Part shown: in pieces, positions 16,256 to 54,517 of the stretch | Layout: each line of letters begins with the position of its first letter | How positions within the stretch are numbered: the stretch's first letter is position 1 | Origin: Mycolicibacterium fluoranthenivorans | GTDB lineage: Bacteria > Actinomycetota > Actinomycetes > Mycobacteriales > Mycobacteriaceae | Assembly (NCBI RefSeq): GCF_011758805.1 | Contig: NZ_JAANOW010000001.1 | Span: 1,054,001 to 1,118,000 of the forward strand | Length of the DNA stretch: 64,000 bases | Direction: 5' to 3' | Position numbers and translations under genes: made by a program | The notes under the pieces: generated by a model | Told to the model about the DNA's origin: nothing | Seen by the model: only the letters and a program-made list of their open reading frames with translations | Databases searched by the model: none

Positions 16256-16309
16256 AGTGTGGGATTCATGCACAGGCAGTCGCCGATTCCGGTGCGCAGG
16301 ACCCACACT
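16256..16309. repeat. Palindromic element A, upstream copy (bracketing nuclease gene 1)
   Basis: Arms AGTGTGGG (16256-16263) and CCCACACT (16302-16309) are perfect complements separated by 38 nt, with weaker inner pairing (GCAC with GTGC). A second copy with the same arms and the same 38-nt spacing lies at 17178-17231. Within the spacer, 18 of 38 positions agree between copies, in blocks TGCAC, TCGC and CGCAG. The element ends 28 bp before the start codon of the enclosed gene and begins just after the groEL terminator. Confidence 0.85.
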
Positions 16310-16337: not shown

Positions 16338-17171
16338 ATGCAACCGTTCATCGGCAGTGTCGAGATCCGCCGGGGTGCGCTCACCCGACGCGGGCTGGCG
16401 CGTGACCACGTCGCCCTCTACCGCGATGTGTACGTGCGGCGCGATATCGAGCTGACGGCCCGGATCAGGGCGCAGGCGGCCTGGTTGTCTTCGGGTGCCA
16501 CTCTGGCGGGTGTCTCTGCCGCGGCGGTGCTCGGCACGAAGTGGCTCAACCCGAACATGCCTGCCGAGATCATCCGCGCGGACAGGCATGCGCAGGCGGG
16601 AATTGTCGTACACACCTGGCAGCTCGGCGAGCGAGAGACCTGTCGAGCGGGCGGAGCGGAGTGCACCACACCTGCGCGTACGGCGTTCGATCTGGGTCGG
16701 CGGTACGCCGCGCAGGTAGCTGTTCCGGTGCTCGATGCGTTGATGAACGCGACGGGCGTGACACGCGAAGAGGTGGCGGTCGTCATCGACGCCCATCCCG
16801 GGTTTCGCGGCGTGGCCAACGTGCGGGCCGTGCTGGATCTCGTGGACGGTGGTGCCGAGTCGCCGCAGGAGAGCAGGCTCCGGCTGCTTCTGGTCGAGGC
16901 GGGTCTGCCGCGTCCCGAAACCCAGATCGTGTTTCGCGATCTGCGAATCCGGGTCGACCTGGGGTGGCGCAGGTGGAAGGTGGCCGTCGAATACGACGGC
17001 GTCCAGCATTGGTCCGACGCCCGGCAACGCTCCTGGGATATCGACCGGATCGCGCTACTCGAGGATGCTGGTTGGTCGGTGGTGCGCGTCAGCGCCGAGA
17101 TGATGGCACGTCCGGACGTCATCGCGGCGCGGGTCCGCGCGAAGCTGCGGGCGGCGGGGTGCCCGATCTGA
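16338..17171 (+). CDS. AbiEi-like N-domain plus DUF559 (Vsr-like) nuclease-domain protein, copy 1
   Basis: 277-residue protein with two parts. Residues about 1-150 resemble the wHTH-containing AbiEi antitoxin-like family (RGVYV-type motif seen as RDVYVRRDIELTARIRAQA, then AGVSAAAVLG). Residues about 170-270 look like DUF559, a Vsr/PD-(D/E)XK-fold nuclease domain: SPQESRLRLLLVEAGLPRP, the Asp in RVDLGW, then VAVEYDGVQHW and DIDRIALLEDAGWSVVRV. Candidate catalytic residues (Glu, Asp, Glu) are all retained. The ATG at 16338 gives an N-terminus matching the paralogue at 52678-53538. The gene is bracketed by two copies of palindrome A. It has no homologue at this place in the M. tuberculosis order, so it is an insertion. 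A partner toxin gene is absent, so a classical AbiE system is unlikely. Confidence 0.85.
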   Translation: MQPFIGSVEIRRGALTRRGLARDHVALYRDVYVRRDIELTARIRAQAAWLSSGATLAGVSAAAVLGTKWLNPNMPAEIIRADRHAQAGIVVHTWQLGERETCRAGGAECTTPARTAFDLGRRYAAQVAVPVLDALMNATGVTREEVAVVIDAHPGFRGVANVRAVLDLVDGGAESPQESRLRLLLVEAGLPRPETQIVFRDLRIRVDLGWRRWKVAVEYDGVQHWSDARQRSWDIDRIALLEDAGWSVVRVSAEMMARPDVIAARVRAKLRAAGCPI

Positions 17172-17177
17172 GGAGTG

Positions 17178-17231
17178 AGTGTGGGTGCTGTGCACGCGAA
17201 TTCGCATTACTGCGAACGCAGCACCCACACT
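17178..17231. repeat. Palindromic element A, downstream copy (bracketing nuclease gene 1)
   Basis: Arms AGTGTGGG and CCCACACT with a 38-nt spacer, identical in arms and spacing to 16256-16309. Here pairing extends outward and inward to 16 bp (17177-17192 with 17217-17232) with one mismatch. It begins 6 bp after the nuclease gene stop and ends 13 bp before the stop of the convergent MFS gene, so it may also work as a two-way terminator. Confidence 0.88.
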
Positions 17232-50707: not shown

Positions 50708-50747
50708 GCGTCAGGCCCCGTCCGCCACCGCGGGCGGGGCCTGACGC
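50708..50747 (+). terminator. Strong stem-loop after icl
   Basis: GCGTCAGGCCCCG pairs perfectly with CGGGGCCTGACGC, with a 14-nt loop that can pair further. There is no T run, so it may be a Rho-dependent pause or a mycobacterial U-poor terminator. Confidence 0.75.
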
Positions 50748-51649: not shown

Positions 51650-52618
<969 letters not shown>

Positions 52619-52635: not shown

Positions 52636-52698
52636 CGCCGAGACCACGGTTTCTGACGAGAATCGACACGGACCTCGTCAGAAACCGTAGTCTCGGCG
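52636..52698. repeat. Palindromic element B, copy at the 3' end of nuclease gene 2
   Basis: Arms CGCCGAGACCACGG and CCGTAGTCTCGGCG are separated by 35 nt. Pairing extends to 29 bp each side (52632-52660 with 52674-52702) with one mismatch. The right arm contains the last six codons and stop (TGA at 52678-52680) of the nuclease gene. The spacing equals that of the second copy at 53582-53644. Confidence 0.9.
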
Positions 52699-53538
52699 CC
52701 TTTTGAGTGCGTCGTGGGTACGCGTGATGACGGCGTCGGGCAGGTAACGCAGATGTCTGGCGCTGACCCGCACGATGGTCCATCCCGCGTCCGCCAGGAA
52801 TTCCAGCCGGTCGATGTCCGAACTGTGGATCGCCGGGTCCCTCCAGTGCTGTTCGCCGTCGTACTCGACGCCCACCATCCACTGCGGCCAACCCATATCG
52901 ATCCGGCGTACCACGCGACCCCGGTCGTTGCGCACGGGTATCTGGGTGACCGGTCGGGGGAGCCCGGCGCGCACCAGCAAAAGGCGCAGCCGCGTTTCCT
53001 GCGGAGATTCAGCTCCGGGATCACAGAGGTCGAGTACCTGGCGCAGGCGGCGGATTCTGCGCGCGCCCGGGTAGCGCTCGGCAATCGCGGCGACCACAGC
53101 CACCCGCTCGCCCGCGTGGTTGAGCAGCGCGTCGATGCGGATGATGCCGGTGTCCACCGGCAGTCGTCGTCCCATGTCATAGCAAGTACGCGCCGCCGTT
53201 GTGCAACGGATGTCGCCGACCGTGGTGAGTTCGTCGTCGGCGATCTCACCGGAGTGCACCACGATGCCGGGCGGGCTGGGTTGGCGGAGGCGAGCCAGTT
53301 CGGCCGGGGCGTCGGCGGGTAGCCATCTACTGCCGAGCATCGCGGCCGCCGAGTAGCCGGCCAGCGTCGCCCTCCGACCCGACCACAGCCAGGCAGCGGT
53401 TGCGCGGGTAGCGGCATCCAGCGCCATGTCGCGCGGAACGTAGACGTTGTGATGCAGCTTCCGGTACTTCGTCCGCAGTCCGTGGCGCGTCGTCAGGCCG
53501 GTGGCCAGCGCTTCGGTGCCCAGCACGATGTGTCCCAC
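52678..53538 (-). CDS. AbiEi-like N-domain plus DUF559 (Vsr-like) nuclease-domain protein, copy 2
   Basis: 286-residue paralogue of the protein at 16338-17171. N-terminal winged-helix-like region (LHHNVYVPRDMALDAATRAT, AGYSAAAMLGSRW) and a C-terminal DUF559 domain: SPQETRLRLLLVRAGLPRP, RRIDMGWPQW, VGVEYDGEQHWRD, DIDRLEFLADAGWTIVRV. The putative nuclease residues are retained. GTG start at 53538. Its last residues (RRDYGF) and stop are written inside the right arm of palindrome B, and another copy of the palindrome lies 43 bp upstream of the start. Not present at this place in M. tuberculosis, so probably an insertion between umaA and the PPK2 gene. Confidence 0.85.
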   Translation of the reverse strand: MGHIVLGTEALATGLTTRHGLRTKYRKLHHNVYVPRDMALDAATRATAAWLWSGRRATLAGYSAAAMLGSRWLPADAPAELARLRQPSPPGIVVHSGEIADDELTTVGDIRCTTAARTCYDMGRRLPVDTGIIRIDALLNHAGERVAVVAAIAERYPGARRIRRLRQVLDLCDPGAESPQETRLRLLLVRAGLPRPVTQIPVRNDRGRVVRRIDMGWPQWMVGVEYDGEQHWRDPAIHSSDIDRLEFLADAGWTIVRVSARHLRYLPDAVITRTHDALKRRRDYGF

Positions 53539-53581
53539 ACCCCTTACCGGACGCAGCGCGGCAGCATTCGGTTCCCGCGCA

Positions 53582-53644
53582 CGCCGAGACTACGGATGTT
53601 GACGGCGAAGCCGGAAAATCACACCACAAACCGTAGTTTCGGCG
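53582..53644. repeat. Palindromic element B, copy at the 5' side of nuclease gene 2
   Basis: Arms CGCCGAGACTACGG and CCGTAGTTTCGGCG with a 35-nt spacer, the same spacing as 52636-52698. The spacer shares TTGACG and ACAAA-like blocks with the other copy, 15 of 35 positions. It ends 3 bp before the stop of the PPK2 gene and so may serve as its terminator. Confidence 0.85.
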
Positions 53645-53647
53645 GAC

Positions 53648-54517
53648 CTAGGCCCTCGCCAACCGCTTCTTCTCGGCCTTCACGTCGAAGTCCGGTGGCG
53701 GCCAGGCAAAGTTGAACTCCTTGAGCGCCTCGATGAGCAGCTCCAGGATGGCCAGCCGGCTGTACCACTTGCGGTTGCACGGAATCACATGCCAGGGCGC
53801 GTAGTCGGTCGACGTGCGGTCCAGCATCACCTGATAGGCCTCCTGGTATTTGGGCCACAGCAGCCGCTCGTCGATATCGGCAGGGTTGTACTTCCAGAAC
53901 TTGTCGGGCCGTTCCAGTCGCTCGGCCAGGCGCTTCTTCTGCTCGTCCAGCGAGACGAACATCGCCACCTTCACGATCTTCGTGCCGCCCTCGACGAGTT
54001 CCTTCTCGAACGCGTTGATCTCGTCGTAGCGCGCACCCCACACCTCGGGCGGGACCAGGTTGTGGACGCGCACGATCAGCACGTCCTCGTAGTGTGAACG
54101 GTCGAACACCCCGATGTGGCCGGCCGCGGGCAGGGCGTTGCGGATCCGCCACAGATAGTGGTGGGCCAGCTCCTCCTCCGTGGGTTTACCGAAGCTGGCG
54201 TAGTCGATTCCCTGCGGATTGCCTGCTCCTACAACATGTTTGACGATGCCGCCCTTGCCTGCGGTATCCATGCCCTGCAGCACCAGCAGCAGTGATCGGG
54301 TATCGCCGGCGCGGCTGTTGGCGTACAGCATCTCCTGCAACTCGGCGAAGCGGATATTGCGCTCGGCCTGCAGCACGGGGGCGTCGCGTTTGGAGCCGAC
54401 GAATCCGGGTGTGGCGTCCGGGTCGATCCCGGTGACCGAGGAGCCGGGCTTGAATTCCAGATGGGTGTGCGGCTCGTGGGTCCACAGCGCCGGGAGGTCG
54501 GTGTCACTGGTCGTCAC
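53648..54517 (-). CDS. Polyphosphate kinase 2 family protein, second paralogue
   Basis: 289-residue P-loop kinase. Walker A LQGMDTAGKGGIVKHVVGAG near residue 80, lid and Walker B FDRSHYEDVLIVRVHNL, and the NPADIDERLLWPKYQEAYQVM region. The DRSHYEDV form differs from the DRSWYNRAG of the PPK2 at 25474-26331, so the two belong to different PPK2 subfamilies; this one resembles the nucleoside mono/diphosphate-phosphorylating group. GTG start at 54517. The TetR gene lies 81 bp upstream on the same strand. Confidence 0.9.
   Translation of the reverse strand: MTTSDTDLPALWTHEPHTHLEFKPGSSVTGIDPDATPGFVGSKRDAPVLQAERNIRFAELQEMLYANSRAGDTRSLLLVLQGMDTAGKGGIVKHVVGAGNPQGIDYASFGKPTEEELAHHYLWRIRNALPAAGHIGVFDRSHYEDVLIVRVHNLVPPEVWGARYDEINAFEKELVEGGTKIVKVAMFVSLDEQKKRLAERLERPDKFWKYNPADIDERLLWPKYQEAYQVMLDRTSTDYAPWHVIPCNRKWYSRLAILELLIEALKEFNFAWPPPDFDVKAEKKRLARA

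What the first reader, a model, noticed from the sequence alone, without database searches (positions are those of the whole stretch)
52636..53644. Second nuclease-domain paralogue bracketed by its own palindrome pair, spacing 35 nt, gene stop written inside the palindrome (cassette B)
The paralogous gene has different palindromes on both sides (CGCCGAGAC[CT]ACGG-N35-CCGTAGT[CT]TCGGCG) with equal spacing. The 3' copy's right arm encodes the last six residues and the stop codon of the protein. A different palindrome but the same architecture as cassette A argues that gene and palindrome co-evolve as specific pairs.
Basis: partly seen in the sequence, partly recalled or inferred. Interest (0 to 1): 0.88.

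Follow-up and report, generated by a model that had tools for sequence, protein, structure and literature searches.

The report
Nuclease gene bracketed by mobile palindromes
A mycobacterial DNA-cutting-enzyme gene sits between two copies of its own 63-base palindrome, and the same palindrome is scattered through related genomes that carry the enzyme, which looks like a self-spreading repeat system run by an enzyme type not known to do this.

Summary
A 286-aa protein (AbiEi-like part plus Vsr-like nuclease part) lies between two 63-bp units CGCCGAGAC[CT]ACGG-N35-CCGTAGT[CT]TCGGCG; its stop codon is inside one. The architecture is general: in mycobacteria and Rhodococcus, left and right units match better than all 100 shuffles in 99 of 128 nuclease loci, and paralogues have different units. 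The units also occur without the gene. Solo copies of near-constant length (60-64 bp) are dispersed in related genomes (44 sites in one). Near-identical copies can have unrelated flanks; no target duplications were found. Of genomes with a B-type nuclease, 33 of 38 have 5 or more matches, against 9 of 110 others. The cassette is present, absent or reversed at one locus. In one genome two near-identical units bracket a 4.9-kb operon that three relatives lack. Best reading: a REPIN/RAYT-like system in which an AbiEi-Vsr fusion, not an HUH transposase, acts on cognate palindromes. Cutting and mobilisation are inferred. Against: protein-palindrome matching fades below ~55% identity, and in seven of sixteen genomes the solo units compared do not match the nuclease compared.

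The parts
52678..53538 (-). Nuclease gene of cassette B, 286 aa: AbiEi-like N-terminal part fused to a Vsr/DUF559/MTES_1575-type nuclease domain
53020..53538 (-). AbiEi-like region, residues 1-173 (proposed palindrome-binding part)
52684..53007 (-). Vsr-like nuclease domain, about residues 178-285, with invariant D214, E225, D227, D241 (and E181)
52636..52698 (.). 63-bp palindromic unit at the 3' end of the gene; its right arm plus 7 nt holds the last six codons and the stop
53582..53644 (.). 63-bp palindromic unit upstream of the gene start, 3 nt from the 3' end of the PPK2 gene
16350..17171 (+). Cassette A paralogue (49% identical); start is that of the matched stretch, end is the stop codon
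   Evidence: (L003)
16256..16309 (.). 54-bp unit of cassette A, upstream copy
17178..17231 (.). 54-bp unit of cassette A, downstream copy
51686..52618 (+). Left neighbour, mycolic acid cyclopropane synthetase family (PF02353), one of the anchors of the filled/empty-site comparison
53648..54517 (-). Right neighbour, polyphosphate kinase 2 family (PF03976), main anchor of the filled/empty-site comparison

Best explanation
Cassette B is one member of a REPIN/RAYT-like family of mobile palindromic elements that uses an unrelated enzyme. The AbiEi-like part of the protein reads the inverted arms of its own 54-64-bp palindrome, and the Vsr-like part nicks or cuts DNA at or next to it. Repair or copying of the broken palindrome makes new solo copies elsewhere, often just behind genes, and keeps the left and right copies alike. 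The gene between two copies is the autonomous form; solo units are the non-autonomous form; two units can bracket foreign cargo. SHOWN: gene-palindrome pairing, dispersal with sharp borders and no target duplication, association of element number with nuclease presence, presence/absence and reversal of the cassette at one locus, the predicted protein fold. INFERRED: binding, cutting, and that the nuclease causes the spread.
For: Pairing: left/right units beat all 100 shuffles in 99 of 128 loci (own 8/9, G245 9/12, orthologues 22/29, named genomes 60/78; a few named loci repeat loci of the other groups, and one search removed 5 of the 99 as near-duplicates). Dispersal: the exact B pattern is in 29 of 396 genomes, reversed controls 0; 26 of the 29 loci fetched (one per genome) have no such gene within 1.5 kb; 82 matches on both strands, 44 sites, in G245, two of them flanking its nuclease. 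Borders: pairs 93.5-97% identical within a genome with flanks no more alike than chance (L222/L229, L172/L174, the L161 pair, the L223 pair); duplications of 3-9 bp in 0 of 88 elements. Association: 33 of 38 genomes with a B-type nuclease against 9 of 110 without have 5 or more matches (P 1.5e-19); after subtracting 4 matches per B-type genome for its own flanking copies, 3 or more matches in 26/38 against 18/110, P 6e-9. Solo units rank their own genome's nuclease flanks at 3.0 on a 0-15 scale, 7.5 expected (88 units, 16 nucleases). Locus: filled in 13 and empty in 17 of 30 ppk2 loci, reversed in 3 of the 13; 1 of the 17 empty sites keeps a single 62-bp unit. Cargo: a 4.9-kb operon between two 97%-identical units in G087, absent in G011, G013 and G014, where the matching flanks lie 17-27 nt apart. 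Arms: 95% of cells paired, 55 double changes against 12.7 in shuffles (40 units). Fold. AbiEi-type proteins bind 23-bp inverted repeats (PMC7319586, abstract and passages).
Against: No binding, cutting or movement was observed. The genome association does not correct for relatedness, and the E <= 1e-95 cut for B-type was chosen after seeing the table. Nine genomes without a B-type nuclease by that cut still have 5 or more matches (G114 23, G066 22, G081 17, G039 16, G135 12, G141 8, G147 8, G140 6, G088 5); of these G039 has a partial B-like gene at the ppk2 locus. Two B-type genomes, G053 and G098, have none. In 7 of 16 genomes (G065, G011, G028, G042, G055, G067, G137) the solo units compared do not match the nuclease compared (mean ranks 9.5-13 of 15); this rests on four units in G065 and one in each of the others, five of those found with the B pattern, and G067 and G137 have a second B-type nuclease that was not compared. 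The overall protein-palindrome rank correlation is not significant. 29 of 128 loci fail the flank test; some have a unit on one side only (for example L050, L061). In 4 of the 21 rows of element pairs at 87% or more identity a flank is also alike, so some copies are parts of longer repeats. 16 of 17 empty ppk2 sites keep no unit. The 40 units were picked by me from about 90, mostly well-paired ones, and were found by a pattern or model that rewards pairing. Vsr-like nucleases have no strand-transfer activity that I know of (recalled).
Confidence: 0.55

Rival explanations
1. Homing: the protein is a free-standing Vsr/EDxHD-type homing endonuclease, the palindrome is its target, and the cassette copies itself into solo palindromes by break repair using the palindromes as homology arms. 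Solo units are empty homing sites and spread by another route.
Against: 16 of 17 empty ppk2 sites have no unit, so an intact target in the empty allele is not the rule; the solo units themselves behave as dispersed repeats with sharp borders, which homing does not explain.
Confidence: 0.2
2. Operator sites: the protein is an AbiEi-like autoregulator and the palindromes are its operators; dispersed copies are a regulon or decoys.
For: AbiEi-like N-terminal part; AbiEi and Rv2827c bind pairs of 23-bp inverted repeats in their own promoters (PMC7319586); the upstream unit ends a median 55 nt before the matched start.
Against: A unit also sits at the 3' end of the gene; the aligned unit starts before the end of the stop codon in 59 of 99 loci. 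Only 4 of 57 elements lie between divergent genes, with 8 placed inside a called ORF and 3 unplaced. Copies with unrelated flanks are 93.5-97% identical over their whole length, variable centre included.
Confidence: 0.12
3. Host-useful palindromes, such as bidirectional terminators or 3'-end protectors; the nuclease gene is a passenger.
For: Units often lie just behind stop codons: 18 of 26 solo units between convergent genes (about 7 of these seem to be one orthologous locus) and 24 of 57 elements in two genomes; three of four units folded are much more stable than shuffles.
Against: The convergent share is only modestly above the 20 of 60 element-free gene pairs in the same set of loci, G087's left out. 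No terminator-like site was reported at cassette B, but that scan allows loops of 3-8 nt only and could not report the 13-nt-loop stem. Paralogue-specific sequence and the tie to the nuclease stay unexplained.
Confidence: 0.08
4. Anti-phage defence or toxin-antitoxin gene with incidental palindromes.
For: PADLOC AbiEi models match.
Against: No toxin gene next to it: the window neighbours are CMAS and PPK2 family genes. It does not explain the palindromes. No relative covering 80% of the query in 50,697 phage or 72,556 plasmid records at E <= 1e-5.
Confidence: 0.05

Closest known systems
REPIN/RAYT (REPtron) systems
   Same: A single-copy, paralogue-distinct enzyme gene flanked by its own palindromes; non-autonomous inverted-repeat units dispersed between genes; proposed co-evolution of enzyme and palindrome (PMC3116915 passages; PMC6006769 passages).
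   Different: Enzyme is AbiEi plus Vsr-like nuclease, not an HUH/Y1 transposase; the unit is one 54-64-bp near-palindrome without a GTAG/CGTC foot; hosts seen here are mycobacteria and Rhodococcus, and PMC6006769 reports only TnpA subclass 1.1 (IS200 type) in Actinobacteridae in its sample.
AbiEi antitoxins (Rv2827c, S. agalactiae AbiEi)
   Different: Carries a nuclease domain, has no toxin gene beside it, and its repeats are also downstream of the gene and dispersed.
Vsr/EDxHD homing endonuclease I-Bth0305I and Vsr
   Different: Carries an AbiEi-like part; palindromic units on both sides of the gene; other differences not examined.
Stem-loop families of M. tuberculosis such as Myt-1 (72 bp, 75 members)
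   Same: Dispersed mycobacterial stem-loop repeats of similar size (PMC2267715 passages).
   Different: No enzyme partner is named in the passages seen; sequence relation to these units was not tested.

Membership tests
REPIN/RAYT | Enzyme with HUH/Y1 transposase domain | tested here: not met
   Pfam at E <= 1 finds MTES_1575, DUF559 and, in some paralogues, AbiEi_1, but no Y1_Tnp; the model matches AbiEi and Vsr-like folds
REPIN/RAYT | Enzyme gene flanked by its own palindromes | tested here: met
   99 of 128 loci
REPIN/RAYT | Non-autonomous palindromic copies dispersed between genes | tested here: met
   that they move was not shown
REPIN/RAYT | GTAG or CGTC tetranucleotide at the foot of the palindrome | tested here: not met
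   B-type units begin CGCCG and end CGGCG; GTAG and CGTC occur only further inside, and the A arms AGTGTGGG/CCCACACT have neither
AbiE type IV toxin-antitoxin | AbiEi fold | tested here: met
AbiE type IV toxin-antitoxin | AbiEii nucleotidyltransferase toxin gene next to it | tested here: not met
   adjacent genes in the window are PF02353 and PF03976 members; other genomes' neighbours were matched only to the window's neighbours
Homing endonuclease gene | Homing-endonuclease-type catalytic fold | tested here: met
Homing endonuclease gene | Insertion into a cognate site that stands intact in empty alleles | tested here: inconclusive
   1 of 17 empty ppk2 sites has a 62-bp unit
DDE-type insertion sequence | Target-site duplication | tested here: not met
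   duplications of 3-9 bp in 0 of 88 elements; some elements are old, so lost duplications are possible
Integron cassette | Tyrosine integrase and attC consensus | not tested
   considered because a gene lies beside a hairpin; no integrase or attC search was made

The most novel reading that the evidence does not exclude
A transposase-free mobility system: families of AbiEi-Vsr fusion nucleases, several to a dozen per mycobacterial genome, each spread and maintain their own palindrome and can carry foreign genes between two palindromes. This would be a second, independently evolved REPIN-like system and an overlooked source of gene gain, inversion and intergenic hairpins in mycobacteria.
Probability: 0.4. 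Interest if true: 0.92.

Novelty: new variant of a known kind. Interest (0 to 1): 0.85.

Why it matters
Homologues are in 147 of 148 genomes of the genus searched, with 1 to 16 matches each, yet no paper seen in the ten searches made links them to palindromes. If right, it explains a class of mycobacterial intergenic hairpins, gives a function to DUF559/MTES_1575-type proteins, shows that REPIN-like systems evolved more than once with unrelated enzymes, and yields a set of matched nuclease-palindrome pairs for studying DNA recognition. The cargo case suggests a route of gene acquisition without a conventional transposase.

Tried and rejected
(1) 'Palindrome confined to the gene': first believed from the own genome (two exact copies), dropped when the pattern was run on 396 genomes. 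The own genome has one further, weaker B-type unit (C1:1412036-1412098, E 6.5e-7).

(2) Target-site duplication: none. (3) Terminator scan: none reported at cassette B, though its loop limit of 8 nt excludes the stem seen. (4) Rfam at gathering scores: no match in the whole window. (5) NCBIfam: no match for B or A. (6) Plasmid and phage records: only distant partial relatives. (7) A global protein-palindrome correlation: weak. (8) A first flank-alignment null that used other loci's flanks was spoiled by shared synteny (null up to 131) and was replaced by dinucleotide shuffles. (9) Foldseek against the PDB: no match at E <= 0.001; the folds named rest on the VIA second look.

Rows dropped before counts: L297 and L334 (contig edges) and the fragments L008, L010, L267 and L268. 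One search stopped with an error at the 20th of 30 loci; redid the scan for all 30. In one search, five near-duplicate proteins were removed (99 to 94). In one search, units flanking the nuclease were left out and one nuclease per genome was compared. One search used 40 units picked from about 90.

Literature: ten searches, all ten allowed. DUF559 with mycobacteri: 0 papers. DUF559 with palindrom: 2 papers, judged irrelevant from the listing. No paper linking such nucleases to palindromes was seen in these listings, which show only the top rows of the larger result sets. PMC7319586, PMC2267715, PMC3116915, PMC10117815, PMC8266576 and PMC6006769 were read as passages only; no paper was read whole.

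Full report
What is there. The window is part of a 6.4-Mb genome (G000:C1:1054001-1118000); its closest named relatives are Mycolicibacterium and Mycobacterium. Between a cyclopropane-synthetase-family gene and a PPK2-family gene lies one ORF of 286 aa, 52678-53538 on the minus strand. The copy behind the gene is a 32-bp stem with a 13-nt loop. Its right arm and the next 7 nt spell the last six codons and the stop.

Clades have their own pairs. The genome has 11 matches to the protein, some of them fragments. Paralogues are bracketed by units of quite different sequence, e.g. TGGCCAGTTAT, AGTGTGGG (cassette A), GAGTGTGAA, CCGCGAGATTGC, GATTTCGGCGCGCT. A second genome, G245, shows the same for 9 of 12 paralogues tested. 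Left-right similarity exceeded all 100 dinucleotide shuffles in 8 of 9 own loci, 9 of 12 in G245, 22 of 29 orthologues and 60 of 78 named loci, which include Rhodococcus and Mycobacteroides. A few of these loci repeat one another between groups; one search took out five of the 99 as near-duplicates.

The units are dispersed. The exact B pattern is in 29 of 396 genomes, with 0 for the reversed control. Of 29 loci fetched, one per genome, 26 have no such nuclease within 1.5 kb. The first and last base of the unit, which were not part of that pattern, are C and G in all 31 aligned units, 29 of them found by it. A covariance model built from these finds 82 matches on both strands in G245 (44 sites), 32 in G133 and 6 in the own genome. 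Model matches in the G245 and G133 set are 61-64 bp long. Within a genome, pairs such as L222/L229 (95%), L172/L174 (93.5%), the L161 pair (97%, opposite orientations) and the L223 pair (94%) have 60-bp flanks no more alike than chance; there is no target duplication (0 of 88 for 3-9 bp). Others are parts of longer repeats: in 4 of 21 rows at 87% or more a flank is alike too, and the perfect pair L180/L191 shares about 260 bp. Arms change in step: 55 double changes against 12.7 in shuffles, 95% of cells paired. I picked those 40 units from about 90, mostly well-paired ones, and they were found with pairing-aware tools, so this overstates the case.

Tie to the nuclease. I called a genome B-type if its best match had E <= 1e-95 (38 of 148), a cut made after seeing the table. 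Five or more model matches are present in 33 of 38 such genomes and 9 of 110 others; two B-type genomes have none. Removing four matches per B-type genome for its own flanking copies leaves 26 of 38 against 18 of 110 with three or more. Relatedness is not corrected for. Solo units resemble the flanks of their own genome's nuclease more than those of others (mean rank 3.0 on 0-15, 88 units, 16 nucleases). This is strong in G245, G133, G087 and G109, which supply 73 of the 88 units, and fails in seven genomes (G065, G011, G028, G042, G055, G067, G137), six of them represented by one unit. Orphan subfamilies exist, such as the CGCCGAGACTGC units of G245. The overall correlation between protein and palindrome across non-syntenic pairs is weak (rho 0.08, 48 of 500 permutations) and a difference appears only at 55% protein identity and above (0.286 against 0.201, 0 of 1000).

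Behaviour at a locus. In 30 ppk2 loci the gene is present in 13 (one of them, L075, only in part) and absent in 17, and reversed relative to ppk2 in 3 of the 13. Of the 17 empty sites, 16 have no such unit and one (L089) keeps a single unit of exactly 62 bp. In G087 two units 97% identical bracket 4.9 kb with an AraC-family regulator, an aromatic-ring hydroxylase, an iron-containing alcohol dehydrogenase and an intradiol-type dioxygenase (Pfam; hydroxyquinol-type pathway by my reading). In G014, G013 and G011 the matching flanks of the same two genes are 17-27 nt apart, without unit or operon. In G020 and G021 other genes lie at that spot.

How it probably works. The AbiEi-like part would bind the inverted arms; AbiEi and Rv2827c do bind 23-bp inverted repeats (PMC7319586). 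The Vsr-like part would nick or cut there. Repair or copying would create new copies and keep both flanks alike. Binding, cutting and causation are inferred. A homing version, with the palindrome as target, is the main rival. Operators and terminators explain parts of the pattern but not the dispersed, paralogue-specific, sharp-bordered copies.

Comparison. The system works like REPIN/RAYT, where each RAYT is a distinct single-copy gene beside its REPs (PMC3116915 passages). It is not a member: no HUH transposase and no GTAG/CGTC foot. Actinobacteridae were reported to have only TnpA subclass 1.1, the IS200 type (PMC6006769 passages), so this may fill that niche. An unexplained 72-bp M. tuberculosis stem-loop family, Myt-1, is listed in PMC2267715 (passages); whether it is related was not tested.

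Verdict. I rate it a new variant of a known kind, interest 0.85, confidence 0.55 in the mechanism.

Noticed in passing
L161 1001-5982 (G087:C1:4939285-4944266): Aromatic-degradation operon bracketed by two near-identical units and absent at the same spot in three relatives; possible palindrome-bounded cargo
   Followed up: partly
L223, L224 (G245:C56, G245:C6): Other small genes lie between two units: an AHSA1-family gene (with an ArsR-like ORF by reading) in L223 and a glyoxalase-family gene in L224
   Followed up: partly
L180/L191 (G133): Identical 62-bp units sit inside a ~260-bp repeat that is 90% identical, so a larger composite repeat exists
   Followed up: no
L230, L232, L234, L236-L238, L242, L243, L245, L246 (G245): Ten units CGCCGAGACTGC...AGATCG (with small variations) form a subfamily with no nuclease partner found among the paralogues examined in that genome
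   Followed up: no
L384 3423-3475 (G020): A strong hairpin of yet another sequence lies at the same insertion spot as the G087 cargo
   Followed up: no
G000:C1:1279398-1280154 (L008, L010): Two adjacent fragments of what looks like a broken paralogue in the own genome
   Followed up: no
G000:C4:305842-305895 (L203): A solo 54-bp unit of the cassette A family
   Followed up: partly
window 50708-50747: 18-bp near-perfect hairpin with a 4-nt loop between two metabolic genes; looks like an ordinary terminator
   Followed up: no
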